A stretch of DNA of 64,000 nucleotides, taken from NCBI GenBank assembly GCA_032358255.1, contig JAULBX010027716.1, positions 124,001 to 188,000 of the forward strand, given 5' to 3'. The notes below the pieces were generated by a model, which was not told the DNA's origin, did no database searches, and was given only the letters and a program-made list of their open reading frames with translations. This document shows, one piece after another, positions 8,571 to 61,600 of this stretch (positions are counted from its first letter, which is position 1; each line of letters begins with the position of its first letter). The stretch comes from Heterotrichella gracilis. Taxonomy: Eukaryota; Sar; Xanthophyceae; Tribonematales; Xanthonemataceae. Both the position numbers and the translations under genes were made by a program.

Positions 8571-11500
8571 ATGCAACCGCCAGCTACAGTGAAGTCAATA
8601 GTTGTCATCAGAGTCACGTTTCCAAGCCCACGCCGATCACAATCCCCCCCATCGTGCTGCGCAGACGGAGGCAGCCCGCCATGGCTGCACCTGCTGATGA
8701 TGGTCCTCATGGTGGTCACGCAAATAGCGTGGGGGCTCTTCCCCGTGTGCTGCCGCTACCTGCAGGTAAGGACCCACTCATACGGCCTCGTTAAAGGCTT
8801 GATCGGGGGGGTGGTGTGCTTGGGCAGCCTGATATGGGGTGGGGGTGGGTGGGGGTGGCAAGCATGGTGTGCTGGGGGGGGTCTGTGACAGCTGTCGAAA
8901 ACTCAACTTCTATAAACTCAACTGCACCCAATTATGCTGCAGTCTTCTGCTACTAAATTTTCTGCATTCCTGAAGGGGGGTGTGCGCTTTCCCCACGCGC
9001 CCCACCTGTGTTAGACGGCACTAACCATCAAATAATGTAGGTTTTTCGTCGAAAGTAAGTGTGGTTGTGCAGGCCTTCAGAGCGCACCCGATACCCGCCC
9101 TAAGCCCTAAACCCTAAAGCCCTAAGAAAATATGGTTTGTGCAGGCCTTGAGCGCCCACCAGATACCCTCCCTACACCCTAAACCCTAAAGCCCTAAACC
9201 TGTATGGTTTGCGCAGGCCTTCAGCGCCACCCGATACCCACCCTAAACCCTAAAACCCTTAACCTATATGGTTGCGCAGGCCTTCAGCGCGCACCCGATC
9301 CCCACTGTGCGCCTCAACTTCCTGGTCAACGCGCTGGCTGCCCCCGCCCTCTTCCTCAGTTACACCCTGCCCAAGTTCCTGTGGTGCTTTGGCAAGCGCG
9401 TGATCCGATCAGTGAGCAGCATGAGCATGGCGTCCTTCTTCGATGACGACCCCAAGCCGTGCCTGACGATGCACCAGTTTGTGTACGTGGGCTCAGCGCA
9501 ACAACCCTGTATGCACGCACCCGCACAACAACCCTCACCATGGCGCGGATTCCATTCACACTGTGTGCACGCTGGCGGCAGCCGCTAGGTCAGCCCTGGC
9601 CATTGGCTGTAACAGTTGCCGGTGCCACTGTCTCAGCTGTGTGGGCGCCTGTTTTGTGCACAGATATCTGTGCGCCATGAGCGCCTGTTTAGGGATGAGG
9701 GTTCAGGGTCATCGGCCCCGCATATAATCCCCGTGCACCACGTGTTGTTGCCGGTGCCAACGTCCTAGTGTGCGCGCAGGTACCTGAGTACCATAAGCGC
9801 CTGTGCTGGCCGACATTAAACCCTACACCCTAAGCAGTTGGCTCCCTTGTTGCCGGTGCCAACGCCTCATGTGTGTGCCTGCGCAGGTACCTGAGCGCCA
9901 TGAGCGCCTGCCTGCTAGTGCTTGCCATCACCAACTTGCTGGCTGTGCGCCTCACACTGGCCTACTGGGTGCAGCTGGTGTTCCTGCTCACGCCGCTGTT
10001 TGTGGCGGTCATGACGTACTTCTTCCTCAGGTGAGGCGCAGCTCCACTGAATGGGATTCGTGGTGGCGGTGGCATCAGGCAGCACCTGTGGCACCTGTGA
10101 AGCATCGATCTTGACAATGGGCACTTAGTATATATGTGCAGCTGGTATTCACGCATGTTGCTCTTTTTGGCGGCCATAATGTACTTCTTCCTATGATGAT
10201 ATACCGTGCATGAATGTTATTATTTTATAACAAATCTTGTGAATCTTACCAATATCATTCTGTCACGTGACATGAGGCATACCAGGCATGCCACCCTGGC
10301 TTTGAAGCTGGAGTGCAAAGCACTTAACTTTGCACGTAAAAACATCCTGTAAAATACCTGCACTACCACACCCACCTTTCACATTGCTTGACCCCCCCGC
10401 GCCCCTCCTCCCAGGGCGCCCCTGCCCTACAAGTTCCGCCCTACCGTGATCGTGACCACCATCGGAGCCACCCTCATCATCGTGGGGGCTAGCCAGTCCT
10501 CCACCGACAAGTACAAGCCCAGCATGCACGACGTGTGGGGCCTGGCCTTTGCGCTTGTGTCCACCATGTGCATCGCGGTGTTCACGGTGCTCACGCAGAA
10601 GACATCAAACACAATCAACGAGAGCCAGGTAGGCGGCGGGATCAGTGAGCTATTTTTGGTTTATATATTTTGCTTATTTTACAAGGATTTTGAGGTAGGC
10701 AGGAGGGAACTAACCCAGGCCCATTAGTCTGCGCTGACAGCGGCTAATGCATGGGTGTTTCATTTCCGGTGTACTTGCTTGGTAGTATTTCTGGTGTATT
10801 AATATGGTCAGATTTTCTCCCTTCTGCAGGTCCTGTGGGCCATGTACATCACCCAGGTGGCCTTTGATTTGAACGTCTTTTTATTATGGAAAATATTAAT
10901 ATTTTAATATCAGTATGTTGATATTTTCTCCCTGCTGCAGGTCCTGTGGGCCATGTACATCACCCAGCTGGGCGCCTCCGCCGCCATCTCCATCCCCCTG
11001 GAGGGCACAGACTTCTCCGAGCTGCTCAACATGGACAGGACAGAGTGGTCATACCTGCTGTTTGCATCCATCGGCGTGTACTGGGGGGCAAACTTTGCGC
11101 AGCAGGCCGCCATCCGGTTCTGCGGGGCGGCCATGTTTGCAGGTGAGGGAGGGTGGTTAGGTACATGCATTCCAGCAAGTTGAGGGTTTAGGGTTTACAG
11201 CTACCCTTTCCACACCTGTATCTAGTTTGCAATTTCCCCCAGCAGTTGCAGAAGTTATGTACATGCATGCCAGCGGGGCCATCGAATATTAAGGAGCCCA
11301 TCGCTCCTCTGAGCGACCATTGGTGGTTACATTCCTCGTGAATATGAAGTGCATCCATCCAGTAGGTTATAGTGTTGGTACTTGTAGCAAGCGACAAAAC
11401 CTGCATCAGCAGTACTGCATATTCTGACGAGTGCCATGTTGCTGCGCAGCATTCCTTGCTGTGCGGCCGCTGTCCGCCATCATCGGCTCGCACTTCCTGC

Positions 11501-11670
11501 TGGGCGAGAGCATCGAAAACCCCATTGAGGGCGCCGGCATCGTGGTGGTGGTGTGCTGCGTATCCTGGTACCTGTGGGTGCAGTGGAGGATGTCCAGCAA
11601 GCAGCACGCGCAGCGCTCCGCCTTCCCATCGGTGGAGTCGCACCAGGACGAGGCTGCGATGCTGGCCTGA
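8571..11670 (+). CDS. Drug/metabolite transporter superfamily carrier (EamA/TPT-like)
   Basis: Predicted multi-pass carrier, 392 aa, six exons: 8571-8765, 9280-9482, 9887-10030, 10415-10628, 10941-11142, 11450-11670. All junctions are GT-AG and in frame. About ten hydrophobic segments are visible, from LHLLMMVLMVVTQIAWGLFP (about 43-62) to IVVVVCCVSWYLWVQW near the C-terminus. The C-terminal half ends with the DMT-type helix pair containing VRPLSAIIGSHFLLGE followed by a short basic/acidic tail. A hydrophilic loop holding FFDDDPKPCLTMHQ lies at about 115-130. Family members move nucleotide sugars, triose phosphates, purines or amino acids; the substrate cannot be read from this sequence. An upstream in-frame GTG at 8532 exists, but ATG 8571 is the first ATG. 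Introns 1, 2 and 4 and the 3' flank carry repeated copies of exon edges. Confidence 0.8.
9062..9290 (+). repeat. Echoes of the exon 2 acceptor of the transporter
   Basis: Four tandem units of about 65-70 bp, starting near 9066, 9130, 9204 and 9268. Each contains 'gcaggcctt' plus 'agcgc..cacc.gatacc' and, in the first three, a CCCTAAACCCTAAA-like tail. Only the last unit runs into the coding exon (from 9280). The first three therefore look like copied 3' splice sites plus the first 20-25 bases of the exon. Confidence 0.85.
9605..9915 (+). repeat. Echoes of the exon 3 acceptor of the transporter
   Basis: Three units sharing 'gttgccggtgcca', then 'gcgcaggtacctgag.gcca' or 'cacagatatctgtgcgcca', then 'tgagcgcctg': about 9608-9690, 9748-9805 and 9848-9915. 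The third is the real acceptor, with the exon starting at 9887. A CCCTAAA-type fragment (accctacaccctaag) lies between the second and third. Confidence 0.8.
10826..10970 (+). repeat. Echo of the exon 5 acceptor of the transporter
   Basis: About 36 bp from 'cttctgcaggtcctgtgg' to 'catcaccca' occurs at 10825-10858 and again at 10934-10967, 109 bp apart. Coding continues only from the second copy (exon start 10941). The spacer is AT-rich and lacks the telomere motif. Confidence 0.9.
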
Positions 11671-11800
11671 TTAGAATTTTTTAAGGGTGCACTAGGGACG
11701 AGACCGCTTTGCTGGCCTAATGAGGGGTTTACAAGGTGCACTTGGTTGCCTGTTTAGGTTTAGGGTGCACCAGGATGAGGCTGCGCTGCTGGCCTAGGTG
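11641..11800 (+). repeat. Echoes of the transporter CDS end
   Basis: The last 30 coding bases (HQDEAAMLA then stop) are repeated in the 3' flank at about 11689-11720 and 11767-11797, each preceded by 'gggtgca' and with TTTAGGG fragments between. The copies have point changes and no open frame of their own. Confidence 0.8.
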
Positions 11801-14002
11801 GGCGGGGTGAATACTAGGTGAACACAAACCTAAACCAGGCTGCCTATTAGGGTTTAGGTTTGTGGTGCACCACAAGGCCGTTGGCAGCAATGGCTGAAGC
11901 AGGTATCCGACCCTAGGCTGGACCAGCGAGCACGGTTGAACCCTAAGCCCTAAGCGGGAGTTTTGGTATCCACGTGATGAACATGTTGAGGAATGAGGGA
12001 CGATTTCACTGCGCACCGTGCGCTGCAACATTGCATAGCATCACGTACAGCGTTGAAACAGGATGTTTCCCATTCCTGCAAGCCTCCGGCAGGGCTTGTT
12101 GCCCTCAAAAGCTGCAGTTGTCCTAAGCTTGAGCCAGTTGAGGAGGGTTGAGGGCATTTTGTCAGGGTTAGGGGTAGGACTAGGCCCAGTCTAGTTTTGT
12201 GGACCCACGTTTTTCCTTTTTTTTGCGGCTAGACGCGCAATGCGCTGCTTGCGCTAACATGCCAAACCAGCAATGTGTGCTAAATCATACCATTGTGTTC
12301 AAGTCCCTGTTTGCCTGCGTGTGCGTGTGTGCTCCTCTTCCATCTGTGCTCCTGTCCCACCTTCACGCCTGATATTTAAACCTTGGGGTTTTTCACAGCC
12401 ACATGCAGGGACGCTCCTTTCCTAATGTGGCATGCGTCTAGCAAATTGCGGCAATTTTGACCTTTTCAGGTGGTAGTTGAGCTCCCTGTTGGCTAGTCCC
12501 ATTTACTGGTTTGGAAACACTGCTCGCCTAGGCTATTTACTCACATGATGGACACCAAGTTACCCAGCTCTTCACCAAGTTGCCAATTTCTGATGCTCTG
12601 TGTTTTCAGGTTGCCTGTGCTGTTTGGTGTCTTTGCTTGGTTCTGCAAGGGGGTGTGAAGTTGGGTTTGTGGCACACTATTTTCGTGCAGCACTGCTGGC
12701 CTGGCTGCCACCAAGGCGAATGCATCCTGCACTCTTCAGAAAGCGATGTTTCAATTTCGGTAATAGGGTTTTACAAATGTGACACCGGATTGGGTACACA
12801 ATGGTGACATTCATCCATGCGCTTTGGCAAAGCGCTCAATGTGCAGCATACTTGTTGTGTTACACAGAACTCAGCACACTTTGGCCACCATTATTCTCTT
12901 GCTGGCAGACAATGTGCTGAGTTTTGCTTCGGAGCGAGAGCGCCCACGCTTACATCAAATTTAAATCAAAACCCTAAATCCAATTCTCCATGGGCTCGGC
13001 AAACTCCTCATGCATGTCCCAACTCATCACAAAAAATTCCAAGATTTCAAATGTGAATGAGCAGTTAAAATTTGAAAGAGCCAACTCCCAAGGGAGTCTT
13101 GTCAACGCCTATTGCGCACATTTGGCCCTCTAGATAATCAGATGCGATCGACTAGGTTGGTGGACTCAGCGGTGAGTTTGCATGCAGCACACAAAAATGT
13201 TACAACAGTCTAGTCTAGTTGCTCTAAGATATGAATATATGCACAGGATTTGACCTCCATGGATCAGTGGATCAAAGAGCTCCCCTCTACAAACTTTACG
13301 TAGCAAGCTCTGCTTCACATCTTAGATGTCTACACATGGGCCACAGCCTGGGCAGCAACGAGGACAACCAAGCAGGCTGACAAGGCCCATGGGTAACAGC
13401 CTGGGATACAATTTTACACCTCACAGGCACTGGCGCATGCACAGGTACTGGCGCATGCACAGGTACTGGCGCATGCACAGGTACTGGCGCATGCACACGC
13501 CATATCGCACGACAGTGGTGTTGAGTCAACATGTTGCTCATTTCTTCCACCAAAATGACTTCAGTATAAGCCAATGTTCGGCTTGGGAAGCTTTTATTGC
13601 AATTGTTAATTCAAATTGTGCAGAATCTCGTTATGGCAACTGTGTTGTTTCAGCCTATTACATAATATTATATTTATGTAGAGCAGACACTCACTCAAAT
13701 TTTTTAAAATACATGGAGTGCCAGAATTTGGACTCCATACTCACTCGGAATGAGTCCGCAAGATGTGTTTCCTTACTTTTGCAAGACAAGCAGTGGCAAT
13801 AGAAAATGCTGAAGGAACACACAAATCGTGGTAGTGAGCCAAGGTTCCCACCCTAAACCGTATCTAGGCTTCACGTCCTGGTCGGCGCCATCTGGCAGTC
13901 CCTGAGCGCCGCTGCCCACTCCGGTGCCTGTGGGTCCAGCGCCAGCAGCTGGTACACCCTACAACCCTAGCCAGGATGCACACCCTAAACCCTATCTAGG
14001 CT
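11801..14002. other. Convergent spacer between transporter and SirB1-like gene
   Basis: No gene recognised. It holds the 3' flanks of both neighbours, telomere-motif fragments (11833-11860, 11938-11955), an 18-bp minisatellite at 13424-13497, and at 13865-13958 a copy of the end of the SirB1-like gene. Confidence 0.5.
13424..13497. repeat. 18-bp minisatellite
   Basis: Four nearly perfect copies of TACTGGCGCATGCACAGG; the first copy differs at one base. Each unit contains the palindrome GCATGC. Confidence 0.95.
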
Positions 14003-14092
14003 TCACGTCCTGGTTGGCGCCAGCTGGCAGTCCCTGAGCGCTGCGGCCCACTCCGGTGCCTGTGGGTCCAGCGCCAGCAGCTGGTACACCCA
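13865..14092 (-). repeat. Duplicated last-exon segment of the SirB1-like gene
   Basis: About 95 bp covering the final codons and stop of the gene (minus strand, 14003-14092) recur at 13865-13958 with few changes, at a period of 132 bp. The copy covers 'gctgctggcgctggaccc' to the TGA. CCCTAAA-like bases (13980-13992) lie between the copies. The outer copy lies beyond the stop codon and is not needed for the protein. Confidence 0.9.
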
Positions 14093-19085: not shown

Positions 19086-22000
19086 ATGGACGACATCAGC
19101 TTCATCGCGCACCTGCTGTCCAACACCACTGTGGCCACAAGCAGCGCCAGTGGGCAGCCTGCTTCGGAGGAGCCACCTGCCAGGCGCGGCCTGCTGCACA
19201 GGTAGGTATTTAGGGTTTAGGGTTGAGCGTCAAGGGTTTCGTTGGTATCGTGCAGCCAGGCCCCCTCAGAGGACCCACGTGCCAGGCACGGCCCTGCTGC
19301 ACAGGCAAGGGTTCAGGGTTTAGGGTTTAGGCTTTTTTAGAGTCTAGTTGAATGCATGCCAGCCGTAAGCCAGGTGAGCAGTCACCCCTGCACAGGCCTT
19401 GCACCACTAACGTGTAGCCTCCTGGCATTTCTGAACATGCAGAATTCCGTTGTTAAGGAGAAAAAGGCAGCTTTGGGGTTTATAGTTTTGAACTCAAAGC
19501 ACAATATAATTAATTTGGGCTGGCCGGTTCCTGTGCGCAGGTTGGATGCGGCAGGGGCCAGGGGCCACCGCCAGGGAAGGAAACGCAGCGCGAACACGCA
19601 TAGGGAGTCGCCACCAGCGGACCACAGCGGTGGGTCGCCCAGCAGCAAAGTCACGAGGACCAGCCCCCAGCACGCCAGTCCCAGGAACGTGGTCCCCAGC
19701 CGATACCCTAGGCACGCGCCGCGGAACCCTAGTGGGCTCCCTCCCCGCGGGCCGGACCTGCGCCCCACCCCCATGCAGATGGAGGGAGGGGGGGGAGGAG
19801 TGGGGGGTGGGGGTGAGGGGGGGGGAAGGGCTGCCAGTCACTCCCTCGCTGGCCCAGGCCCCGCTCGTGGCAACGCACACAGATACACCCACCACCACCA
19901 CCACCACCACCACCTGCCTCCGCCTCCGCCGGAGCTGCAGCAGCTTGGCAAAAAGTGCGTGTGTGGCTGTGCATGGGTATCTGTGTTGCACATGTATGCA
20001 TGCAGGTATGTGTGCATGTGTTTGTGTGCATCAGGATGCTGTGTACATTTGTGTAAATGCACATGTGTGTGTGTACGGCGTGCGCCTGTGTATGTGTACC
20101 TGACCTGCAAACAGGATGCTCCAATGCCTGCTACGCGTTGCACCAACATGCCTGTCAGCTTATGCCCACCTATACCAGTGTACCAGCAAATCATTTCCAT
20201 GCCCACCCCACCCGCACCCACACACATCCCCACCGCCTTTATCCTCGTGCAACAAAGCATGAATATGAATGCTGTATATGCACATGATTTCTGTAGATGC
20301 AGACCGGGTGGTGGCTCCGCAAACGAACACTTCCACAGCCCCTGTGTGAGTGACACGTGGCGTGACTGCACGCAGGGGCCAGTACTGCAGCTTGTGCGGC
20401 GTGTGGGTGGGGGGCGGGGAGGGGGGCTGGCGGGTGCATGTGGGCGGCATCCGGCACCAGCGCCAGGCAGTGTCTGTGCGCCTGCATGGGGAGACGGGGC
20501 ACCTGGTGGTGTCGGCATTTGAGGCGCTGCCAGGTGGGTGGAAGGGGGCATGATTTAGGCCCCTGTATAAAGGTGCAAGGTGGAGGAAAGGGGGGTGGCC
20601 CATTTAGGTCCCTGTGGTGTGTGGGCATGTGAGGGGCGCCCAGGTGGGGGAATAGGGGAGGGGAAGGGCCGCAATGTAGGTCCCTGGTGTTGCTGCCACC
20701 ACATTGTTCCACGGCACTTCACCACCCTGCTGCATCATCACCCCACCCCCACTGTTGTATGCCGGAATGCATGCAAGTACTGCAATGTCCCCGAATTTTG
20801 TATTTATGTGCATTTCATGCTCCCTTTCGTTTCAAAGAAGTGACTTGACCCCGCACACACACTGCCAGGCCCCTCCGATCCAGTGCATCGCCTGGTGGGT
20901 AGTAAAGGCGCGGGGGGGTTTGCTCACTCGCCACTGCTGGCGCCCCCAACCGCCCCCCACCCGGGCCCCCAGCAAGTGCCCGAGGGGGTAAGAGCTCTTC
21001 ACCTGCACCTGCGCAAGGAGTTGGTCAACACATGTGGGGGTCTGCTCAACTCAGGTGGGGAGAGTGGGTTCAGGGTCTAGGGTCTGAGGTGTAGGGCTTA
21101 GGAGGAAGCTGAGTACAAACATGTTTGGAAGTTGCAGCATCCATGTGTGGTTGGGGTATCTGCCCAATTTGGGTAGTCCCATAATTTACCCCATTAGGGC
21201 CACAGCCCATTTCCAAGCTAGTCACCTACCAACCCAAAAACCCTTCTGTAGGGTACAACGAGGCCCTGCAGCTGCTGGGCCTTGGCAAGCTGCAGCGCGC
21301 ATGCGAGCGCCCAAACCCTCAAGGTGTGCAAAGGGTCGAGGAGCAAGGGGGTGCCGTCAGGGTCAGGGTACGGGGCCTGGCGGGTGCTGAGCTGGCAGGT
21401 GCACTGTTTCACCTGGACCTATCGCAATGCACCACGCTGGAGATTGAAGGTAGGCCAGTTGTAGGGTCTGGAAAGCATTGGGTTCCTATCATAGTAAGGA
21501 TGCAAAAACACATTTAGTGTTTCAATTATGATGTATTCCTCCTTTTGAGTAGATACATGCAGTACAGTATTATTCTGTTCTTGACGCTACACATTGGTGT
21601 ACTGTTTTAGTAAAGAGTTCCCTGTGCTAACAAGCGTAAAAGTATATTGGAGCGCAAGTGCAGCACGTGCTGCACACCTGGTAAAGAGTGCCCTAATGTA
21701 CAATCTTCCCTGGCACCGCCCCCCCCTCATCCCCAACCCCTCAACACCCGCCTCCACCCACCACACCCCTCACCCCGCAGCCGCGGCCCAGTCCCGCGCC
21801 CAAGCAATCGCAGCAAGCGCTGTGCTCTGCCACCTGGCGAGGCGCCACCTGGCACACAGCCACACACCCCACCACTTGGTGCTGGACCTGTGCAGGGCAC
21901 TGGTGGCTGTGGGGGGCGCCCACCCCTGGCCCACCCAGCAGCAGCCGGTGGGGTGGCCCATGCGGGGGGTGGTGGAGGACGCGCTGCGGCAGGCGATGGA

Positions 22001-24030: not shown

Positions 24031-27000
24031 TCAGTTCCACTCCCCCCTGGACGCTGGACGCGCACCCCCATCCAGCCCCACCGGTGCAAAGGGCGCCGAT
24101 GGCACCCCTCCCGCCCCCTGTGCCCTCCCCGGCGAGTAGCTGATGTCATCAATGTCAAGCTCCAGGGGCCCCAGCCCGTATCCCAACCCCAGCTCTTCCT
24201 CCCCATCCATCCCCGGGACTGCCCCCCCTGCATGGCCACCGTTTTGGTGGTTGTGCTGCTGCGGTGGGGGGGCGGAGTATGGCCTGTCCTGGCCCCCGTT
24301 GGTAAGCTCCTCCAGGTTACTTGTCGATGGGGTTGTTGAGGTGCGGCCGCCAAACAGCGGCTTCATATACCTGGATACGGGGTTTACGGTGTGGTTTAGG
24401 GTGCAGTTGTAGGGCAAATCGTAGGGTGTCATTCGACAAAGGGGAGGTGCGGCCACCAAACAGCCGCTTGATGTACCCGGGTGAAGGGGAGGGGTTGGTT
24501 CAGGATTCAGGGGGCGGTGCAGGGTGTGGTGTATGGAAATTGAGGATGTCATCTGAGAAAGCCTGTGCCATGCATCCTTTACAATGAGCGGCAATGGCGG
24601 CACAAGTCACACTGCCCAGATGAATTTACCCTAGTTTTTATACGCAGTGTATACCCTGCGTTCCTCTATTACTTTGCTGTTTCTCCCCAGCCTCCCCCAT
24701 ACATTGCGCATCCTCACCCCCCCCCACCCCCATCCCCCCCCGCCCCCACACCCACCTCGCATCCACCATCTTCCACAGCATCTGGGTGCGAGATGGCTCC
24801 TCCAGGCTCCTCCCCTCAGCAATGGCTGCCGCGCCCCCACCCCCGGGCTCCCTCAGCCTTGCGTACAGCCCGTCAAACAGAATTGCATCGCTGTCGCCCT
24901 CAAGGTTCAGGCGGCGAAGGAGGGGGCCTGCAGAGGGGGGTGAGGGGGGTGGGGTGGGGGACATGGTGGAGGTGGGTAAATGGAGGCTGTGCCGGTGGTG
25001 TGCGTGTGAGGTGGGGTTATAATAACATAAAAAAGGGTGAATGAACCGGGTTCAGGCGGCGCAGGAGGTGCCTCTGTGGAGTGAAGGTGTGCATGTGTCA
25101 GTGCTGATAGTCTGCCTCAAAACGCGCAGCACTGCGGCGGCCAGAAAGCACGGGAGAGGCCCCCTCCCTCTCCAGTCCACTTCCACCCCTCCCACCGGTC
25201 AGGCCCGCAAACCACCAGCACCCCTGCATGAGCCCCCCAAACACCAGCGTGGTCACCACCACAATGAACAGCGTGGCTGTCTCTATGGCGGGGATCCCCT
25301 CCTCCCCTGATTTGGACGGCAAGTTGACGGCCAGACCATACGCCACCGCCCCCCTCAGCCCGCATGCCCACTGCATGAGCTGCAGGTGCTCAGGGATGGG
25401 CACGCGCCGCCCTGCGATGGGGGGTGGGTGGGTGTGAGGGGTGGGGTGGGGGGGCAGGTGCAGGGAAGTGGGTGGAGGTGCTTGAGATGGTCGGTAAGTT
25501 GGGGAGTGATGGGTGCAAGATTGCAGGCAGGAAAATGGCAAACTGATGGGTGAGACGTTGCCTGCAATTAATCCATTGGGCCCATGGACTAGGGCCTGCC
25601 CAGTCACCAGCGTCAAGATTTCAAAGAGGGTGTCCAACCCACAGCTTGTCCTGCCCCCGGCTGGGAGCGATTAGGGTTTAGGGTTGGGCCTGTGCCGCTC
25701 ACCTAGATTGACCAGCTTTGCCAGGGGGAATATGTTACAGGCGCGCGACAGCAGGCACAGCGGGATGCCAGTTATGAGCAGGCCGATGTCCCACCGGTGC
25801 CTGTGGGTGGCAACCTGTGAAGAGGGGGAGCAGGGCGTTACGGTTTAGGGTTTAGGTTCAAGGTGCCTGTGGGTGGCAACCTGAAGAGAGGGGAGGGGGG
25901 TCCGGGAGGGAGGTAGGGGTGCGTGATGGCCCAAAGGACGCTGCTTATCCGGCTACAATGCCGAGTGGTAGGTAAGTAATAGCTATATTGTAATATCGTT
26001 CTTGAACAACTTATTCTGCAATTATACAAATATGGCTGCTGAAACAAAAAAAGCCCTTCTACCGGCTTCCCTGTGTACTACCGGTGCCTGTGGGGCATAT
26101 CCACCTGAAGGCAGGGGTAACGACCAGGGCTGGGTGCATGGACGGCACAGGCAAAAGAAAGCGCTTCCAAGCCAAGATGAAGGCATGCTGTGAATGTTGC
26201 AAGAGCTGGTGCCAAGCTGGCAGACGCGCCTTGGTGGTTCGTACACAGATTGCGAAGGGAAATAATTGTTGCACATGCAGCAGCCTGGCGCAATATTTTT
26301 CTGCTCCAAGCCTTCAGCAGCATTGGCCGCAGGCTTTGATGGCAACGATTTAGATGACTTTGGGGTACCATGGCTTGTTTCAGGAAAGCAAGTGTGGCGG
26401 GACAGTGGCCTCCCTCTTTGGAGGTCACTCACTACCATGCCACAGAGCTTCCCCGAGACACGGCATTGTACCCCAGATAATCCAAACCACCACCATCGGG
26501 GCCTGTGGCCAACGGCTGAAGACTCATACAAGTAGAACACTGCAATTGGCCTGGAGTGCAGGCATGCAAGCAAACTAATTGATGATGCGTTGACAAAGGT
26601 GCCAGTTGAGCGGACTGTGCTGCTATGCACGTGAGTAACCACCAACGTTAGGGTTCAGGACTCAGGGTTTACGTGTTAAAAAAGCACCTGGGGACCCAGG
26701 TATGAGGGTGCAAATTCTCCTCACACAGGACGGCCAACGATTGCGACAACATGCTATGCATTTGGTATTCAAAAGTATATAACCCCTGTCTCATCATGAT
26801 CAATTGCGGCGCACCTGCAGTCCCAGGTAAGCAAACACGAATGTTTCGCACAGGAAGGCCGCAAACTCAAACAGCTTCTTCAGCGTGATCTGCGCGTCTG
26901 AGGTCACGTTGTGGTACGAGTAGTGCGCGTGGCAGATGCCTGCAAGGAAGGGGGGGAGCGGGAATAAACAATTAGATTGAAAATGGAGATAAGGATGCGA

Positions 27001-31065: not shown

Positions 31066-31073
31066 TATATAAA
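31066..31073 (+). promoter_or_regulatory. TATA box candidate
   Basis: TATATAAA in 'cctactatataaaggaaac', plus strand. It lies 1.7 kb before the ATG at 32760, so it would serve a transcript with upstream exons, such as the pieces at 32186-32584. Confidence 0.3.
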
Positions 31074-32584: not shown

Positions 32585-32759
32585 TGGTATGCGCTCTTGC
32601 AACTCAGCGTCAGCGTTTTGCACAGGCCTGTTGCACCCCACGTGTTGCTGTGCATGGTGCACCAAACCGCGTCATGTATGCACACACCCTGGCGTCATTC
32701 CGCACTCACCCTCATCGATGCGCCCCTGTAGGACGACAACAACCCAACAAATAGCAGCA

Positions 32760-42269: not shown

Positions 42270-45200
42270 ATGGCCGCGTTCGTTGTGAAACCACTCCAGT
42301 TACTGGTGGAACGGAGGGGTTCAAACCTCGGTGCCTCCACATCGGTCCCACACCACCCCTTGACTTGGTCCAACAGGACGTGTTTGGCAAGAGCTCAGCG
42401 CACTTTCCTCTCACGAGCAACTAGGGAGGAGCACGATGTTGTGAGCCTGCGGGCTTCGAGCGTGGAAGACCTACTCTCCAGTGCGCAGCCTTTGCGTGTG
42501 ACACACCAGAGCTTTGACCGTGATGGTGCAGAAGCTGGAAACGAAGCGCTGCCTCGGTTTCCCCCGCCAGCCCTGTGGAAAGACGACGCCAACCTCCTGA
42601 GCGGGTGAGGATACAACAGCGTGTGGGTCAAGCTGACCACAAAGAGCCTCCCAAACCTCATTCCCCATGCTTGTTCAAGCAAATCGTACATAGAAGCTTG
42701 TTTCTGAAACCTCCAACCCATGTCGTATTCCTAGCCATAGGTGTGGTATATGCATGCATATGCACCCCAGCGTGCACGCGTTGCGCTGGTTTTCTGTGCC
42801 CTGGCATCCAACTGCCGCCATCCGCCAGCATATGCATGCAGGTGTGTCCATGAACCCCACCCTACCCCACGGCTTCCAGCCGTGAACCTGCCATGCCCCT
42901 CTTAGTGCATGTCCCGCCGCTCCAGCACCATAAATATATATTTGGAAATAACGCTAAATGCCACACGAAGCTGAAACAGACGCCGTGCCCCATTCCCTCC
43001 TGCAGGTGCGAGCCCCGCGCCGCCCCCCTGCGCGTCGCCCTGCTGCTCAGCGGCGGCGTGGACTCCAGCCTGTCACTACACCTGCTGCAGGCCGCGGGAC
43101 ACTCAGTGACCGCCTTCTATCTGCAAATCTGGTTCCAAGAGGATTTTAAAAACTTTTGGGATGCGTGCCCCTGGGACGAGGACATAAAGTACTGCGAGCA
43201 GGTGGGTGGGTTCCAAAAAACCCTAAACCCTAAAGTACCAAAACCTGTTTAAATTGCCCTAAACCTAACGCTCGAGCAGGCCCTGGGCAACCACCTTGAT
43301 CTGTACTTTGGACAGGGATGGGTGAATTTACATGGGCAAGTTATCATGGGTGAATTAACGTGGGAGAATTAATATGGAGGAATTGATACAACGGTGCTGT
43401 GGTCGCTTGCTTTTGGTATCCTTCTCCCCACCCACCCACCTCCCCCCCACCTCCAGGTGTGTGCTTCTGCTGGTGTGGAGCTGCGCGTGGTGCCCCTGAC
43501 CCAGCAGTACTGGGACCGGGTGGTGGCGCACAGCATAGCGGAGATTAAGGCGGGGAGGACGCCTAATCCAGACATGCTGTGCAACTCGAGGTGAGGGTTA
43601 ATTGTTACAAGCTTGGGGTGGAATTCAACCACAAAGATTTAATTGGTTTCAGATAGGCTTAATTTTGCTAATTCCGGTAATTTGGACGTCGAGCGGCAAA
43701 TAGCGCAATTAGCGGAGTCGATGAAAAGTTAATTTTGGGCGCGAAACTACCACTGCGGCTACGGCTAATAGCAATATTACAGGATGGACATGTGGGGATT
43801 GCCACGCCAGTGGCTTGTGAATCCTTGGCTGCGGTCACTTCATTGTAGTCCCCTTGGGTACCCTCCCTCAGCCACAATCACATGGCATGTGGCCCCGGTG
43901 GTTTGCATGCACTACCTGGTGCTCCCAGCGAGGTGAGGATTATGCATGTGCTTTGTTATAGGGTGAAGTTTGGCGCCTTCTACGAGCACCTGGGGCAGCA
44001 CCACGCGGGCGAATTTGACCGCATCGCCTCGGGGCACTATGCGCGGCTGGAGCGGGACGACCCTGGCCAGGAGGCCAGCCCCGTGCGCCTTGCTGTGACC
44101 AGTGATGCGGTGAAGGACCAGACCTACTTTTTGGCGCACCTCACGCAGGCCCAGCTGTCCAGGGTGATGTTTCCACTGGGGCCGCTCACCAAGGTACGCC
44201 GCCGCGCATGTATGGTGTGCACATCGGCCATACTTACTGAATCATATGCACAGTGGATATTTCAGTAGATTGCTTTTTGAATCTCTAATTACTGATGTGC
44301 AAAATTGTTTGCCTTGGAAACTCGATGTGATGTACTCGTTGAGGTATTGCATGTTTGCGCAACCCAAGGTGCCTGGCCTGGCAGGGCAAGTCGCACCCCA
44401 AATCCTACAGGGTGCTCCACCCTGTTTAGCTCAAGGTGTGCGGCCTGGCTCCCGCTGCCAGCCCATCTACCCAGGCACGCATTTTGGATCCATGCAACGC
44501 AAAAATGTCAACCCATATGACAGCTGAGTTTGCGGGACAAGAAAGAAAGAAAGAAAGGGAACGCACAGAGGCGTAGTTAAGGGGCCACTGGCTCGCACCA
44601 GGGCACCACAATCAAAGGCCCAAATTCCCCAAGAAATTCCTCAGACATTCCTGTTCCCTTTGCAGCCCGAGGTGCGTGGCCTGGCAGCAGCAGCCGACCT
44701 GCCCAACAAGGCGCGCAAGGACAGTCAGGGAATCTGCTTCCTGGGCAAGGTCAAATTCAGCGAATTTGTGCGGGAGCACCTGGGGGAGTGGCCGGGGCCC
44801 ATTATCGAGGAGGAGACGGGGGAGATCGTGGGGTACCACAAGGGGGTGTGGTTCCACACCGTGGGGCAGCGCAAGGGGGTGCCGATGTCTGGAGGGCCAT
44901 GGTAAGCACGGCTTGGTACCCCCCTGTGCGCTGAGTATATTGGGGTTGGGTCCATGGTGCACCATGTGGTTAGGGTTTGGGGTCACGAGGCCAATCGCAC
45001 CACATGCACCATTTGTGAGCATTTATGTGGCAAAGGACACATTGCACTCACCTCAGTCTGCGCTAGTTAAATTTGCCGCTCACCGTTTTACCATCCATCA
45101 TTTGCTGTTTACTTTGTTTCGTATTTATTGCGATGCCTTTGCGCCTCATCCCGTTTGACTATGTTAATCATCATCGTAGTTCATTTATATTACTTATCAT

Positions 45201-47474: not shown

Positions 47475-47560
47475 CTACAGGCTGAACACCGCAATGATTG
47501 CCAGTACATAGCACACCAGCACCACCGCCAGCAGCAGCACCACCAGCGCCACCGGCCCCA
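47286..47560 (-). repeat. Echo of the VTC4 last exon (3' end)
   Basis: The final part of the last exon, coding LVCYVLAIIAVFSL then stop (47475-47560), recurs at about 47298-47385 reading LVCYILAVTAVFSL without the stop, 180 bp downstream. It continues open for about 40 codons. The copy is unusually well kept at the protein level. Confidence 0.85.
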
Positions 47561-50500
47561 GCTGGTCGTCGTAGCGCAGCACCTCGCGGCGCAGGATGAG
47601 GCGCGTGCGGCGCCGGTACTGGACCAGCGCGTACACCATGAACAGGATGGCCACGGGGGCAAGGATGAGGCCGGCCAGCTGCAGGGGGGGAGTGAGGCGT
47701 CAGTTGGTGGATCAGGGGGGGAGGAGTCGGTGGATGAACCAAGAGAAGGGGAGGGTGGCGGTGGTTAGACTAGAGGGAGGGGTCAATACACCCGGTACAT
47801 CCTATGCATGGTACATCCAATTCATGGCATAAATAGGATGGCCACGGGGGCCAGGATGAAACCGGCCATCCGCGTAGGGAGGGAGGAGGTACAGTGAGGT
47901 ACTTCTTAAAGTGTTACACCAGGTAGACGCAAAATTTACAAACTTTAGTCCTATGGAGGTAGATGCTGAAATCTCCACCCTCAGTCAAGCTCGCCTGTGG
48001 GATCTAGAATATAAATCTACCTCCATGGGACTAAAATTTGTGGCTCTTGCATCTACCTGGATGTAGCACGCGTGCGAGGACATCCCAGTCCATTGCGTGA
48101 TACATTTGCATTTTCCTTGCCAAACATGCTATGCCCGCATTGGCATGTGTGCTTCAATCCATCTTACCACCCACCCGCCACCTCTTACCTTGCTTGCCTG
48201 CACTCCACCAGCCTCAACTTTATCACCATCAACCCACACCAACCACCGCCAAAGCAGTGAGCATTGACCAGCAAACAAACAAACAAATTGCACGTCACAC
48301 ATCCATCACACACACACACCGTACCTTGGTTGCCTTACACTCCACCTGCCCCGGGGGGCAGGCGCTCGACGAGGTCGCCCCCCCACCCGCCATCGTGGTC
48401 ACCGTGGACCCCCCGATCAGCGACAACGCTGTGAACATCACCAGCACGCTGATCTGCAGCCAGGACAGGAAGGTGCGCTCGTTGGCAAAGAAGGTCTTGG
48501 GCTCCACCTTGGTGCGCACCACTGCTGGTGGGGGGGACTTGCGGCTGGCGCGGGAGGATGCGGGGGGCGCTGTGGGGACCTGCGCATGGGTGGGTTGTCA
48601 GGCTGGAGGTTTGGGCTGGCAAACCAGTGGTGCATGAGCTGTAACTGAGCAACGGATGGCACTGACTGGCTGATTGGACTGACGGATGCATGTGCAGTGC
48701 AAGGGGAGTTGCTGGCTTGGCATCAAAGGTGGGGTCAGACTGAGCTCCCATATCACAAATGCCCTGAGTGAGGTGTCCATTCACCTCACAGTGTGCACGT
48801 CTCCACCTAACCTGATGCAAACCACGAGTTCATACCCTACACCATAAACCTTGAACCTAAACCGTCCTCAACCCCCCACCCACACCCACCCACACAGCCC
48901 GCACACGCACCCGGCCAACGGCGCGCCTGTCACTCTCCGGAGAGTACTTTGACCTCAGGCCCATCCAGGTCACGCTGTCGCTGGGGTGCATGTACGCCTC
49001 GCGCTCAGTCTGGCCCGCAGCCGCCTCCAGATCGTAGTGGGAGGCGGGTTGGGTGGGGTGGGTGGGGCGGCGCAGGCCCAACATGCCCAGCAGGCGGGCG
49101 GCGCGGCGGGGGTGGGGCCTGTGCTCTGGGCCTGTGCGGGGGGTGGAGTGAGGAGGGGGGGTTGAGGGTAGTGCGCCAAGGGGGTAAATGCCAAGGCTTG
49201 AGCTTTGCACAAGTGTGGGTGGATGGGAGTCGTGCACGGAGTGTGCGCACATGTGGCATGCAGATGGTGATTGCAGGGCCAAATATACTTTTGCAGGTGC
49301 GGGGGGCACACCTTGGGATGCTCTCAAAGGGGCACACCTGTGATGCTGCCAGGTGTGGACATGATTTGTTCAAAACACATTTAGCAGTATTCTCAATTTC
49401 CCATGCAACCATAAATGTTAACGCATAATACATCTTACCAATTTTACATGATATGCCAGTGGTTTATTAAATTGTGATACAAAGGTGTAACAGATGTCCA
49501 ACCCACCTCCCGTGGCAACCAAGGCCACCGACGACTCCCTGCTCGCCACCCCAGAGGTGTGGTCCCGGGGGCTGCCGCTGCTGCCGCTGCCCACCCCCTC
49601 CGCCACCGGTTTCACCCCTTGCGAGCTGCCACTGGTGGGGGGTGACAGGCGCAGGGTGTGGAGGGTGCTGGGCACGGGCATCGCCATAGGCATAAGCAGT
49701 GCGGTGTGGGGTGGTGGGGTGGTGTGGGGGTGGGGGTTGTAAACAGATGGGCTGCTGCTGCTGGGGCTGTGGTTTGACGTGCTGGGGGTGCTTGGGAGGC
49801 GGACGCTGCCAAAGGGGTTGGTCTGCATACAGCCAAACATAGGCAAGGCTGAGTGCTAGGAGTGGCGTTTGCAGCCTGCTGCAATGCACGTTGCGGCGGC
49901 AAGGTAGATTACCCACGTTACAAAAATGCTTTGCACCTGGTGCATTGAGTGTACCACAAAACGATATCTTACTTTATTTTTAAATAATTAATTAAACGTA
50001 TCTTATTTTTTTGTGACTGTGATCGTGACTGTAAATGTACTGTGACTGTGCTTTGGTTGTGTCAAATGCCCAGAAACCCACCGGGACTATGGGCACTCCA
50101 CCATCCAGCAGCCCGCCATTTGGGCTGCCACCCACCACGGGAGTAGCAGCAGGCACATATTCCAAGGGAGGGAGCGAATCACTCCTCTCCAATGAGGTCG
50201 GCACTGCCGGGTTTGAGCCAGAGCCACGAGCAGATGCAGATGCTGAAGCAGCCTCTTTGGAGGAGGCATGCTCTGGTATGGCAGTGCAAGGGGAGCCGAT
50301 GGTTGGCGGTGCAGGTAGCTGCTCTGCCCCCGTGTTTGCGTCACCCCACAGCGGGTTGTGGCCCTCTTCAACGTACTCCCCTGGATAGGGTGCCTGCTGC
50401 AAGGGCAGCGGAAACAAAGTAATAAATAGAATTGAATAGGAAACAAAGTCATCAATGTCATAAATCAAAGTCATAAATCAAACTACTTTTTCCGTTAAAG

Positions 50501-53500: not shown

Positions 53501-54342
53501 AGGGTGCTGAATGAGAACTTGCCGAGGAGCACTTGTTGCATGTAGTCTGCGTACTTGTGCTGCACCGACAAGGATTCGTGGCCAAACCTGGCTTGCAGCT
53601 GCCTGCCCATGGTGGGCGAGTCCAGACCGGTGAGGTCATACTGCTGAGCCAAGTCACATGCCAGCCACACATTCTCTGCCGCACAGTGCTCAAGCTGTGC
53701 GATATTGGAGCCTGCACAGATTGGAGAGCATTAATCACCCAATAGAGTACTGTACCCAAAAGAGTACTGTAACATAAAAGTATGCTGCCATAGTTGTTGA
53801 ACTTCAGCCTTGCATCTGTGCAGCATTTGCAAAAGCATGTACTTGTATAATTAAACGTATGGGTGCTTACCTATGTCACTGCAGGTTGCACGTAGGCTCT
53901 GCAGACCCTGGATGGGCACGTCCTTTGTCTGGTGCATCAGCTGCAGGCATTGGTGGGTGTCAAGGATCTGCAGCCACACGCGCTCCATGGAGGACTGCAA
54001 ATACCTGCGCGCCTGCTCAAGGTCCTGGGCAAACACCCGAACAAACTCCTGGGACGTGGCCAGAATGGGCTCTGCTGCTGACAGCTGCACTCCACTCTCG
54101 AAGCCCATTGACTGCAGCACGCTGCTGAAAGGGCTGCGTGTGCCCCCATTGCGGCTCTGTTTGGCAGCTTCAGACAGCACCTGGTCGATGTTTAGAAGGC
54201 CGGATGGTAGGCTATTTGTGCGGTACGTTGCGGCGGCGTGGAGTTGATCCAACTTCCCTTTGAGCATGGAGTGGCGAATGAAGACGCTGTGTTCAGGCTT
54301 CCCACCAGTGTGGGGCTGCCCAAAGTGCGCTGCTGCAGCCAT
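47475..54342 (-). CDS. VTC4: Polyphosphate polymerase VTC4 (SPX-like, VTC, DUF202)
   Basis: Makes inorganic polyphosphate from ATP and passes it into acidocalcisome/vacuole. 1026 aa, 13 exons: 54342-53871, 53711-53494, 53117-52856, 52571-52336, 52110-51970, 51648-51500, 51244-51138, 50836-50652, 50396-50082, 49822-49507, 49131-48911, 48579-48325, 47678-47475; the phases sum exactly. Residues 1-230 take the place of the SPX domain but are diverged. The VTC catalytic tunnel follows: KFERTTTKYWV (about 279), SISSVYYDN, VRVRWYG (about 362), FVEKKTHRE (about 379), VYQRTAFQ, VRVSMDTGL, FPYCVLEIKL (about 504-513) and KFSKYLHG (about 535). These contain the basic residues and Glu known from yeast Vtc4. 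A Ser/Pro/Gly-rich linker of about 230 aa is followed by DUF202 (FFANERTFLSWLQI, about 900) with three membrane helices. The linker exon 9 donor (50082) was chosen by phase. Confidence 0.92.
47636..47870 (-). repeat. Echo of the VTC4 last-exon acceptor
   Basis: 'aacaggatggccacgggggc' plus 'aaggatgaggccggccagct' (47641-47680) recurs at 47832-47872 with four or five changes, upstream of the functional acceptor in the gene's direction. Confidence 0.85.
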
Positions 54343-58662: not shown

Positions 58663-61600
58663 TCATTCCGTCAGGCCAAAGCAGCGCTTGACAATGTTGA
58701 CGTGCTTCCTGGCCGCGTGGCCCTGGCCCTGCTGCGCCTCCAGCCTGGCTGCAGATGTGGAGGGCTTGAAGGACCCCAAGCTCTTGCGCCAGGGCGCCTC
58801 CTGGTTCCCATCGTCCCGCGATCGTCTGCTGCTGCTGCAGGTGGACGGGCACTGATCAGCATAGCATCACATTGCCAATTTTGGAGCATGCAATTTTGGA
58901 GCATGCAATTTTGGAGCATGCTTACACACAAAGGCAAGCACACACTGCCACAGAAGCCCAACACAGGAAAGCGCACGGGGTTCCCAACACTCACTCACAC
59001 CCTTGCATTCGTTGGTCAACGCTTGCCTCAACCTGACGACACAGATAGTCAACAAGTGACTGGTGCTTGCAAAGTAACCGTCCTGGCTTTCGGCTAACCA
59101 TTCATCTATTTCATGCACTTATTGAATAAATATATATATATACACTAAACAAGATTAGTATATATATTTTCAAATATATATTTTTTAATATTTTACTTGT
59201 TTTCAACTTAATAAATAATGAGATAAATCGATAAAACCAGCTGATTAACGGATTCTCACCTTGTGGGCTTTGGCTTCTTGATGCTGCCCATGGTGGCGCC
59301 CTCCGTGAGCTCCTCGATCGCCTGCAGCTCCCGGTCATCCACACCCACCAGCTCCTGCGAACTGGAGGCGCTGATGTCGCCCGGCGTGGAGGGCGGCGTG
59401 GTGGCCATGGCCATTGCCTGCAGCCGCAGCCGGTCCACCGACATCCGGCGCAGGTCCTGCGCCGCCTCGCGCGCCGCAGCCGCCGCAAACGACTTGCGCA
59501 CCATGTCGGGGTCGAAGCAGCCGTGGATGCCGCAGGCGGGGCCGGCGGGCTGGGGCTCGGGGTCCTCCTGCGCGCGGCGCGCCGCGTCCTGCTGCACCAC
59601 GCCCGCCATCTCATCCCAACTGTAGGGCTGCACCTTGTCCCCGGGCTCCGAGGGCTTGCACCAGGAGGGCAGGTCCTTGACCAGGCTGGGGAACATGAGC
59701 GCGGCGCCGTACTGGTACAGGGTGAAGTCGGGGACGGGCAGCAGCAGGCCTGCGGGGGGGCGCGGGGTGCGTCAGGGGTAGCGGCAGAAACCCTAAACCC
59801 TAAACCCATGTAGGTACCCTAAACCGGTCTCTCCGCTGCGGGGTCAGGAGGGCGACAAGGGCTGGCGCGCAATGGGGTGGCCTGGGGGAACAAGATGGCA
59901 GCATACTAGCGGTCAATCCAGGCTAAAAAACCCTAAACCCCTGATCCAGTGTCCCTCAAGGGGGTAGGCTCAGCTTGGACGATTGATCACCTACCACCAG
60001 AGGGTAATTCAGAAACCCTAGAACCCTAAAGAACCCTAGAATTTGCTCACCTAGCGCCAGCAGTCCCTGGAACCAGTATGGCAGCTCCTCCGTGGGCGTG
60101 CGGACCTCCAGCAGGTTGTAGGGGAACTGCGCAAAGGCGCCCTCGCCACGTATCCGCACGTCCTCGTCAAGCGTGAGCGTAAAGGCGCCGCTGGCGTCCG
60201 TGTACACAGCCTGGCTGCGAAGCACCTGCAGCGCCGATTTCACACCCCGTTATGCACGTACATCTGGCGAAAACAACCCCTGGAAATTCCGTTGTTGCAG
60301 GCACCCCATTTCGAAAGGGCTTTTGTGCAACATGATGATAATTTTTCATACATTTTGATACAGGCCTCCTGCCAAAGTTGCACGCAATAACGAAACTCTC
60401 GATATGGTGTGTTTAGGGGTTTTGGGTTTGGTGTTAAGGGTTTAGGGTTTGACCACTGACCTGCAGCACCGGCGCCTGTCGCTCCTCAACCACTTGCTGC
60501 ACTACCTGGGTAAGCATCTCGCGGCCAGCGGGGGGCAGGTCCACAGCCTCGTTGGCAGACAACGTGCCCGCCATGAAGCGCTCCAGGCTGGCAAAGGGCA
60601 GCGGGCAGGTGCCCTGCGGGTGAAGGAAGTTAGTGTTAGTGAAGTGCCTTGGTGGGGAGTACTAACTGAGCGCCATGGCCACCAATGGTCAGGATAGAGC
60701 CAGGCGCTAGGGTCCTGCAGTGGGGATTGTCCATGCAACCAGGCAGTGCGCTCCCAGCCAAGTGTGCAGGGCAAACAACCACGGGGCCTAGGGTTTAGGG
60801 TGTGTGTGCACCGCTCACCAGTCAAGCTGCTGGCAACCATCCACGCGCTTAGGATTTTAGGGTACGAATGCACCGCGCTGTGAGAGTCTAGGGTTTTCAA
60901 GGGTATGCATGCAGTACGCTCACCAGCCACGTCTGCAGGCTCCTGTGCCCCTTGCGCAGCTGCCGCAGCTCCACTGTGGCCAGCCCTGTGGGCACGTCGC
61001 CCGCCCACCGCACGCTCACCGCCGCCACGCCCGCCTCGTCCAGGAAGTGGTGGTAGCCCTTGAGGTCTGGCGTGTCCAGGTGCGTGGTGCACACCTGGGT
61101 GGTGCAGCAGATGTCCTCCGAGGCGAACTCCTCCTGCAGCTTCTGGAGCAGGGACTCTGCGGCACAGGGGGTGGGGTTTCAGGGTTTTGAAGCAGGAAAA
61201 ATGCAGTGCAGCACAGGGAGTAGGGTTTAGGGACAGGGTTTCTGTGGCACAGGAATAAGGGTTAGGGTTTAGGGTTTGTGCGGCACAGAGAGCATTGCGG
61301 GCCAGGTCGCCAGGGCACAAGGATACCCAGGCAGATTGGCAGGAGGAAGGTATGGCGCAGTGAGGTGCAAGTGGGTTCCCATGTTGCAGGAGGCGGCCAG
61401 TGGTCTGGTATAAGTGCATGGTTGGCTTCCCATGGCGCACACAGGGTCTGAGAGTGTGGCAACACACGCAGTGCAGGTGGGGTCCCACGGTGGCTGAGGC
61501 TGCGCAATACCTTCAGTGTACTTTACGGGCTTGAAGGAGGCGATGGTGAGGTGCCTGACAAGCTCCACCTGCACGCGCACAGCGTCCTCGGGCTTGACCC

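What the first reader, a model, noticed from the sequence alone, without database searches (positions are those of the whole stretch)
9062..61295. Exon-edge echoes: splice-site copies beside TTTAGGG motifs in nearly every gene
At least fifteen exon borders are repeated one to three times in the neighbouring intron or 3' flank. Each copy includes the splice site plus about 15-40 coding bases, and most units carry a TTTAGGG or CCCTAAA stretch. Donors, acceptors and stop-codon ends are all affected, on both strands and in unrelated genes, and copies decay with distance from the functional edge. This looks like one ongoing mechanism, such as slippage or break repair at intron borders with telomerase-like filling, that could create alternative splice sites or move introns. 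I know of no named description of this pattern, although I could not search.
Basis: seen in the sequence. Interest (0 to 1): 0.78.

Follow-up and report, generated by a model that had tools for sequence, protein, structure and literature searches.

The report
Copied exon edges with telomere repeats
In the part of this intron-rich eukaryotic genome that was sampled, about one exon end in seven has a decaying copy of itself in the neighbouring intron, often with bits of telomere sequence in between, which looks like scars of an unusual DNA-break repair that lengthens introns from their edges.

Summary
In 314 kb (window plus 250 kb of the same genome; own HMM gene models, no RNA), 97 of 672 exon-terminal 45-mers have a copy in their own intron, against 0 of 672 in other introns, 3 of 672 reversed probes and 2 of 250 exon-interior tests. 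Intron-terminal 45-mers reach 21 of 560, so exon ends are special. Stop-codon ends are hit too (12 of 50). Copies are direct (1 of 672 inverted), reach 20-100 bp into the exon in 81 of 95 and under 30 bp into the intron in 62 of 95. TTTAGGG is the genome's telomere repeat; telomeric 7-mers cover 10.8% of DNA between copies, 2.3% of echo-free introns, 1.0% of intergenic DNA. Echoes decay about neutrally. Not supported: decay with distance; TTTAGGG in "most" units (46 of 95); intron creation (4 of 362). Best reading, inferred: breaks at coding edges repaired by telomere-end enzymes, leaving filler between long direct duplications; only events keeping an intact splice site or stop survive. Components are known; the coding-edge focus I did not find described.

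The parts
9062..9303 (+). Acceptor of exon 9280-9482: three upstream echoes (9062-9096, 9134-9168, and one at 9209-9227 ungapped that goes on after an indel) and the functional copy 9269-9303; CCCTAAA arrays between them (9105-9118, 9177-9198, 9241-9254)
9648..9911 (+). Acceptor of exon 9887-10030: echoes 9657-9686 and 9774-9803, functional 9880-9910
9995..10192 (+). Donor end of exon 9887-10030 (9995-10027) and its downstream echo 10160-10192
10797..10971 (+). Acceptor of exon 10941-11142: echo 10797-10860, 47-bp non-telomeric filler, functional 10908-10971
   Evidence: the HMM took the echo as an extra exon
11640..11813 (+). Stop-codon end of the EamA-like transporter gene (11640-11670) with two echoes in the 3' flank (11696-11724, 11767-11795), telomere-like sequence between
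13863..14091 (-). Last coding exon end of the Transglut_core2 gene (13995-14091) and a 96%-identical echo (13863-13959) with TTTAGGG between; which copy holds the true stop is not settled
19164..19293 (+). Donor end of exon 19086-19201 and echo 19266-19293, TTTAGGG downstream of each
24338..24480 (-). Acceptor of exon 24031-24370 (24338-24374) and echo 24444-24480
25796..25883 (-). Acceptor of exon 25703-25814 and a perfect 22-bp echo 25862-25883, CCCTAAA (gene sense) between
27094..27357 (-). Donor of exon 27318-27646 (sodium/hydrogen exchanger): functional 27308-27357, echoes 27217-27256 and 27133-27178, telomeric filler
   Evidence: best PDB homologue lacks the echoed peptide
28706..28842 (-). 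Acceptor-side end of exon 28494-28745 (28706-28733) and echo 28815-28842
39145..39706 (-). Two acceptor echoes in the acyltransferase gene: 39145-39186 with echo 39364-39405; 39585-39623 with echo 39668-39706
40485..40622 (-). Donor of exon 40586-40655 (40579-40622) and echo 40485-40528; both copies followed by CCCTAAA (gene sense)
40855..40996 (-). Donor of exon 40971-41109 (40967-40996) and echo 40855-40884
44359..44687 (+). Acceptor of exon 44666-44901 in the MnmA-like gene (44662-44687) and echo 44359-44384
47637..47868 (-). Acceptor-side end of exon 47517-47678 (47637-47677) and echo 47828-47868
61157..61295 (-). Repeated short acceptor-like units with CCCTAAA between, upstream of the acceptor of exon 60924-61156; almost no coding part
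   Evidence: read by eye; not among the 19 scored edges

Best explanation
These are scars of break repair at the edges of coding sequence. Shown: direct local duplications of an exon end (medians about 42 bp of exon and 18 bp of intron over 95 edges) lie typically 60-165 bp from their own edge inside the intron, and also in 3' flanks; most are separated from the functional copy by filler (median 75 bp in the 73 of 95 edges with at least 20 bp of it) that is often the species' own telomere repeat. The copy joined to the rest of the exon is the one that must be used, and the others drift. Inferred: two offset nicks, one inside the exon and one just outside it, give a break with long 3' tails; telomerase may add TTTAGGG to a tail and the CST-Pol alpha-primase fill-in enzymes copy the tails, so joining the ends leaves filler between two copies. 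Out-of-frame events inside an exon destroy the gene and vanish; events whose duplicated stretch contains an intact splice site or stop codon are harmless and stay, so introns grow from their ends. Why coding edges are favoured over intron interiors and intergenic DNA is not explained.
For: Edge specificity: 97/672 exon-edge, 2/250 exon-interior; 21/560 intron-edge, 4/192 and 14/238 intron-interior. Duplication clusters against uniform placement: splice edge 99 (41.7 expected), gene end 12 (6.1), intron only 39 (54.4), intergenic 24 (74.8). Direct orientation: 1/672 inverted. Copy interval short on the intron side: e>i in 35 of the 41 best-preserved of 95 edges. Filler unlike the sequence beyond the echo in 33 of 80 (z<1), alike in 26 (z>3); young pairs 15 and 5 of 26. 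Telomere only between copies 25, only beyond 6, both 21, neither 43. Perfect TTTAGGG arrays at the ends of 11 contigs, telomerase domain present. Telomeric 7-mers 10.8/4.2/2.3/1.0/0.5% (between copies/rest of echo introns/other introns/intergenic/coding); telomere-echo association Mantel-Haenszel OR 3.1, p=4e-5, stratified by intron length. Fillers are no repeat family: 3 of 73 have a hit over 2 kb away within the 314 kb. Precedents: telomerase-mediated repeat insertion at breaks, some with flank duplication (PMC2246262, passages); small tandem duplications by CST-Pol alpha at 3'-tailed breaks (PMC8355091, passages).
Against: No enzyme, break or empty ancestral site was seen. Telomerase priming not shown: bases in register at the primer side 14 of 21, at the other side 13 of 24. 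49 of 95 edges have no telomeric 7-mer between the copies. Telomere repeats hug donors also in introns without an echo, so the two may be separable. In the young set (34 clusters) splice edge to intron only is 17:8, which a twofold detection advantage of exon copies could explain on its own. Coding-only duplications are not scarce (21 clusters, 26.1 expected), though 24 of 28 such pairs have lags divisible by 3 and 1 of 21 clusters carries the heptamer. Higher G+C of exons is not a demonstrated cause: intron-only duplications 0.537 against 0.515, p=0.14; intergenic 0.537 against 0.507, p=0.08. First introns have fewer echoes (7 of 59) than middle ones (68 of 249), unexplained.
Confidence: 0.45

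Rival explanations
1. Ordinary small tandem duplications hit everywhere; those inside exons are removed by selection, and copies of exon ends are merely visible for longer because one of the two copies is conserved. Telomere motifs are incidental minisatellite-like matter.
For: Geometry alone predicts many border-spanning events. Echoes drift about neutrally. Young clusters, 17 splice edge to 8 intron only, are compatible with a twofold detection advantage.
Against: The advantage should be at most twofold (inference: the echo drifts alone, two intron copies both drift), while exon edges exceed intron edges 14.0% to 3.75% (82/587, 21/560) and intergenic clusters are 24 against 74.8 expected. 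The short intron part also holds in the best-preserved pairs (35 of 41). Telomere is tied to edge events: 33/111 against 5/39 intron only and 1/24 intergenic.
Confidence: 0.25
2. Telomere repeats came first and sit near coding edges for another reason (for example as splicing or regulatory motifs); as fragile sites (recalled from work on interstitial telomeric repeats, not looked up) they then trigger repeated local duplication towards the exon.
For: In 274 introns without an echo, 40 of 81 heptamers lie within 60 bp of the donor. Near acceptors the gene-sense strand carries CCCTAAA, not TTTAGGG (within 40 bp 16 to 2; acceptor fillers 22 to 1), as expected if a branch-site-like motif is favoured or a cryptic TTTAG acceptor is avoided. 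Telomere beyond the echo as well in 21 of 95.
Against: Heptamers also hug start and stop codons (6 and 5 within 60 bp, 1.7 and 1.4 per kb, against 0.1-0.25 beyond 150 bp), which splicing would not explain. Telomere only between the copies outnumbers only beyond 25 to 6. 49 of 95 edges with echoes have none between. Duplication should also spread away from the exon, and intron-edge copies are few (21/560).
Confidence: 0.2
3. Echoes are used: alternative or duplicated exons, or decoy splice sites kept by selection.
For: The HMM accepted 14 echoes as exons; 25 of 33 donor echoes keep GT and 23 of 30 acceptor echoes keep AG. The pairwise nonsynonymous/synonymous ratio is 0.34, lower than the 0.5 that the simplest one-free-copy model gives; I attribute the rest to mutation bias at GC-rich third positions, untested.
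Against: The GT and AG counts equal the neutral expectation, 25.0 and 22.1. Mismatch by codon position 0.095/0.083/0.18 is compatible with one constrained and one free copy, and there are 18 in-frame stops in 1601 codons. The best exchanger homologue has a gap where the echoed peptide would be; the acyltransferase alignment begins after the echo and says nothing. Lags are multiples of 3 in 31 of 95.
Confidence: 0.04
4. Introners or intron birth: the echoes mark insertion of mobile introns or introns born by exon duplication.
For: 4 of 362 introns score >=11 for similarity in donor-to-acceptor register against 0 of 1080 mismatched pairs; at >=9 it is 6 against 11, no excess beyond chance to speak of.
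Against: That is about 1% of introns. Fillers share no family within the sample (3 of 73). The duplicated stretches contain the host's own splice site and are longer than introner target duplications (recalled).
Confidence: 0.03
5. Assembly or base-calling artefact.
For: None beyond the repetitive look.
Against: Copies are diverged and found on all four sampled contigs: introns with echo 18/71, 42/227, 14/44, 14/20.
Confidence: 0.02

Closest known systems
Interstitial telomeric sequences inserted by telomerase at double-strand breaks in mammals (Nergadze et al. 2007, PMC2246262; passages read)
   Same: Species' own telomere repeat inside chromosomes, some with duplication of the flank (6 of 130 rodent, 4 of 25 primate loci in their Table 1).
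   Different: There flank duplication is the minority and coding edges are not mentioned in the passages read; here, in introns with an echo, filler lies between duplicated flanks and coding edges are preferred.
Small tandem duplications made by CST-Pol alpha-primase at breaks with 3' tails (Schimmel et al. 2021, PMC8355091; passages read)
   Same: Direct duplications of tens of bp, sized by the 3' tail (43-base tails in their assay), made by enzymes that also fill in telomeres.
   Different: No telomeric filler and no exon-edge preference in the passages read; here most copies are separated by filler.
[quoted passage not shown] Ma et al. 2016, PMC4974935; passages read)
   Same: Duplication of exon-border sequence with its splice signals, protein unchanged.
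   Different: There a new intron is born; here existing introns are lengthened, and the birth register is found in 4 of 362.
Introners (PMC9860276; search listing, abstract start and one passage)
   Same: Add DNA to many genes; reported chiefly from fast-evolving lineages such as green algae.
   Different: Introners are copies of one another and create introns; these fillers are unrelated to each other within the sample.

Membership tests
Telomerase-made interstitial telomeric sequences | inserted motif equals the organism's telomere repeat | tested here: met
   perfect (TTTAGGG)7 arrays on 11 contigs, 45 hits, 0 in the backwards control: six within 200 bases of the contig start on the minus strand, five within 5 bases of the contig end on the plus strand (contig lengths); telomerase RNA-binding domain present
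Telomerase-made interstitial telomeric sequences | bases at the break in register with the added repeat, on the primer side | tested here: inconclusive
   14 of 21 primer-side and 13 of 24 other-side junctions have one or more; junctions blurred by decay
Telomerase-made interstitial telomeric sequences | empty site in a relative | not testable with these tools
   the genome has no relatives in the collection
CST-Pol alpha small tandem duplications | direct, not inverted, duplication of tens of bp | tested here: met
   1 of 672 inverted; e median 42, i median 18 over 95 edges
CST-Pol alpha small tandem duplications | copies abut, without filler | tested here: not met
   73 of 95 edges have at least 20 bp of filler, median 75 bp; some abut, e.g. 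C2:4678-4836
CST-Pol alpha small tandem duplications | depends on CST, Ku and Pol alpha | not testable with these tools
   needs mutants
Introners | insertions share sequence | tested here: not met
   3 of 73 fillers have a hit more than 2 kb away at E<1e-3, searched within the 314 kb only
Intron gain by exon tandem duplication | donor region and acceptor region of one intron similar in register | tested here: not met
   4 of 362 introns at score >=11, 0 of 1080 controls: perhaps real but rare, so not the general explanation
Neutral local tandem duplication | placement independent of coding edges once lethal cases are removed | tested here: not met
   198 clusters: 99 splice edge (41.7 expected), 24 intergenic (74.8 expected); the young subset of 34 is inconclusive
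Alternative or duplicated exons | echo keeps frame and coding constraint | tested here: not met
   the 0.34 ratio leaves weak constraint possible

The most novel reading that the evidence does not exclude
This genome has a standing mutational process aimed at the edges of coding sequence: telomere-end enzymes repair breaks there and each event re-copies the exon end into the adjoining noncoding DNA, so that introns and 3' flanks grow outward from exon edges and telomere repeats accumulate as a halo around coding sequence.
Probability: 0.3. Interest if true: 0.85.

Novelty: new variant of a known kind. Interest (0 to 1): 0.62.

Why it matters
If it holds genome-wide, it gives a mechanism by which introns lengthen and splice sites are duplicated, with very many natural cases of different ages in one genome (88 of 362 sampled introns carry an echo), and it makes testable whether telomere enzymes act on internal breaks near genes. 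It would also supply raw material for new splice sites: of the 63 echoed sites whose register could be followed, 48 still have GT or AG.

Tried and rejected
Rejected: slippage of plain tandem units as the only process (fillers unlike the flank; telomere mostly between copies). Rejected: intron birth as the general explanation. Rejected: introner-like family. Rejected: functional echoes. Rejected: decay with distance. Tried without a clear result: telomerase register at junctions; GC richness as the cause of edge preference; genome-wide composite patterns CCCTAAACCC-N5-35-TGCAGG 1134, GGGTTTAGGG-N5-35-TGCAGG 722, CCCTAAACCC-N5-35-GGACGT 42, suggestive only, because the rarity of the control words was not measured; the acyltransferase PDB alignment does not cover the echo. 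Rfam (gathering cut-off) and ARAGORN gave nothing in the window. The organism was not identified; that it may be a green alga is recollection and comes from no call. No description of this pattern turned up in ten paper searches, which cover open-licence PMC papers only and depend on my search words.
Full report
What was examined. The window is 64 kb of contig C519 of an unnamed 68.5-Mb eukaryotic genome with 903 contigs. I added 250 kb from three other contigs and trained an HMM gene finder on the 314 kb. It converged on a CAG|GTGAGT-like donor and a YGCAG|G acceptor, 61 genes and 376 introns. Seven of the eleven window proteins were given to Pfam and all seven matched a family: EamA (27.5 bits, just under its cut-off of 28.2), Transglut_core2, Na_H_Exchanger, Acyltransferase, tRNA_Me_trans (MnmA type), and VTC twice. 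Fourteen predicted exons were copies of a neighbouring exon end and were dropped as echoes, leaving 362 introns.

Is it there, and more than chance? Yes. Local direct repeats number 374, against 10 and 7 when the same sequence is compared with itself about 5 or 9 kb away. Exon-terminal 45-mers find a copy in their own intron in 97 of 672 cases (52 of 724 edges were too short to test), in other introns in 0 of 672, with the probe reversed in 3 of 672, and exon-interior 45-mers in 2 of 250. The masked test gives 82 of 587 exon-edge against 21 of 560 intron-edge probes, controls 0-2 per line, and 1 of 672 inverted copies (Fisher p=8e-10). Intron-interior probes give 4 of 192 (control 2) and 14 of 238 (control 0). 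Stop-codon ends: 12 of 50; start codons: 3 of 39; reversed 0 (start codons are the least sure part of the gene models). The window has 19 echoing edges among 132 probes.

Anatomy. In the 41 best-preserved of 95 edges the copy reaches deeper into the exon than into the intron in 35; over all 95 the medians are 42 and 18 bp, 81 reach 20-100 bp into the exon, 62 stay under 30 bp in the intron, and 11 end inside the exon. At fixed lag, in the 80 edges scoring at least 17, the match is at background from about 20 bp inside the intron but still above it 50 bp inside the exon. The near end of an echo lies 60-140 bp (donors) or 67-165 bp (acceptors) from its own edge, interquartile. 73 of 95 edges have at least 20 bp of filler, median 75 bp. 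The filler resembles what follows the echo in 26 of 80 (z>3) and not in 33 of 80 (z<1); in 26 young pairs the numbers are 5 and 15. So there are two forms, tandem units that include the filler and copies around a unique filler. Examples read in full include an array with a 72-bp unit at 9062-9303 and a near-perfect tandem of 53 bp on C2.

Telomere repeats. Perfect (TTTAGGG)7 arrays lie at the start of six contigs (minus strand) and the end of five (plus strand), so this is the organism's telomere repeat; a telomerase domain is encoded. Telomeric 7-mers cover 10.8% of the DNA between functional edge and echo, 4.2% of the rest of those introns, 2.3% of other introns, 1.0% of intergenic and 0.5% of coding DNA. 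The heptamer occurs 193 times in introns, 46 in intergenic DNA and once in coding DNA; in introns and in intergenic DNA it beats all 133 permutations that are not its rotations. Introns with it have an echo more often (Mantel-Haenszel OR 3.1, p=4e-5). Duplications away from edges rarely carry it (6 of 63, against 33 of 111 at edges). It also hugs donors in echo-free introns (40 of 81 heptamers within 60 bp) and start and stop codons. Within 40 bp of acceptors it is CCCTAAA in gene sense 16 times and TTTAGGG twice; acceptor fillers 22 to 1, donor fillers 14 to 9. I read this as selection against a cryptic TTTAG acceptor or for a branch-site-like motif (inference). Half of the echo edges (49 of 95) have no telomeric 7-mer between the copies.

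What the echoes do. Nothing detectable. Mismatches by codon position (0.095, 0.083, 0.18) are compatible with one constrained and one free copy, with 18 stops in 1601 codons; the pairwise nonsynonymous/synonymous ratio of 0.34 is lower than the simplest such model gives, which I ascribe, untested, to mutation bias at GC-rich third positions. In the 63 of 95 edges where the register could be followed, GT and AG survive as often as neighbouring bases (25 of 33, 25.0 expected; 23 of 30, 22.1 expected), while echoed sites score lower than functional ones. The exchanger's best PDB homologue has a 12-residue gap where the HMM had inserted the echoed peptide.

Is the edge preference real or survivorship? 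Uniform placement with removal of lethal cases predicts 41.7 splice-edge clusters, and 99 are seen; intron-only 54.4 and 39; intergenic 74.8 and 24; coding-only 26.1 and 21, the last being mostly in-frame (24 of 28 pairs have lags divisible by 3). Exon-edge copies should stay visible up to twice as long, because only one copy drifts (inference). That cannot turn the intron-edge rate of 3.75% into 14%, but in the 34 youngest clusters the splice-edge to intron-only ratio (17:8) would not by itself reject it. I therefore give the ordinary-duplication reading 0.25.

Mechanism. Direct copies of tens of bases, filler between them, the telomere repeat as frequent filler, and a location where only events that preserve a splice site or stop can survive, together fit repair of offset nicks by telomere-end enzymes. 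Telomerase insertion at breaks, some with flank duplication (PMC2246262, passages), and CST-Pol alpha-made tandem duplications at 3'-tailed breaks (PMC8355091, passages) are both described. Their combination at coding edges is my inference; the one direct test of telomerase priming that I could make was inconclusive. Unexplained: why the intron-side end sits so near the splice site, why intron interiors and intergenic DNA are spared, and why first introns have fewer echoes (7 of 59, middle introns 68 of 249).

Noticed in passing
C7:7928-8006; C2:34371-34630; C300:13833-13986; C7:26474-26634: Four introns whose donor and acceptor regions are similar in register, as expected of introns born by exon duplication (4 of 362 at score >=11, 0 of 1080 controls).
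   Followed up: partly
introns of the window and sampled contigs: CCCTAAA rather than TTTAGGG in gene sense within 40 bp upstream of acceptors (16 to 2), a possible branch-site or anti-cryptic-acceptor effect.
   Followed up: partly
C300:6032-6334: A 106-bp unit with telomere repeats and exon-edge sequence in at least three copies, 94-98% identical: a very young array.
   Followed up: no
window 13422-13497 and 14559-14618: Non-coding tandem arrays, an 18-bp unit in 4.2 copies and (TAGGGTG)8.6; the second is a telomere-like variant.
   Followed up: no
window 47016-54108 and 58663-62624: Two VTC-domain genes in the same orientation about 4.5 kb apart.
   Followed up: no
introns by rank, 314-kb sample: First introns carry fewer echoes and telomere heptamers (7 and 10 of 59) than middle introns (68 and 69 of 249).
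   Followed up: no
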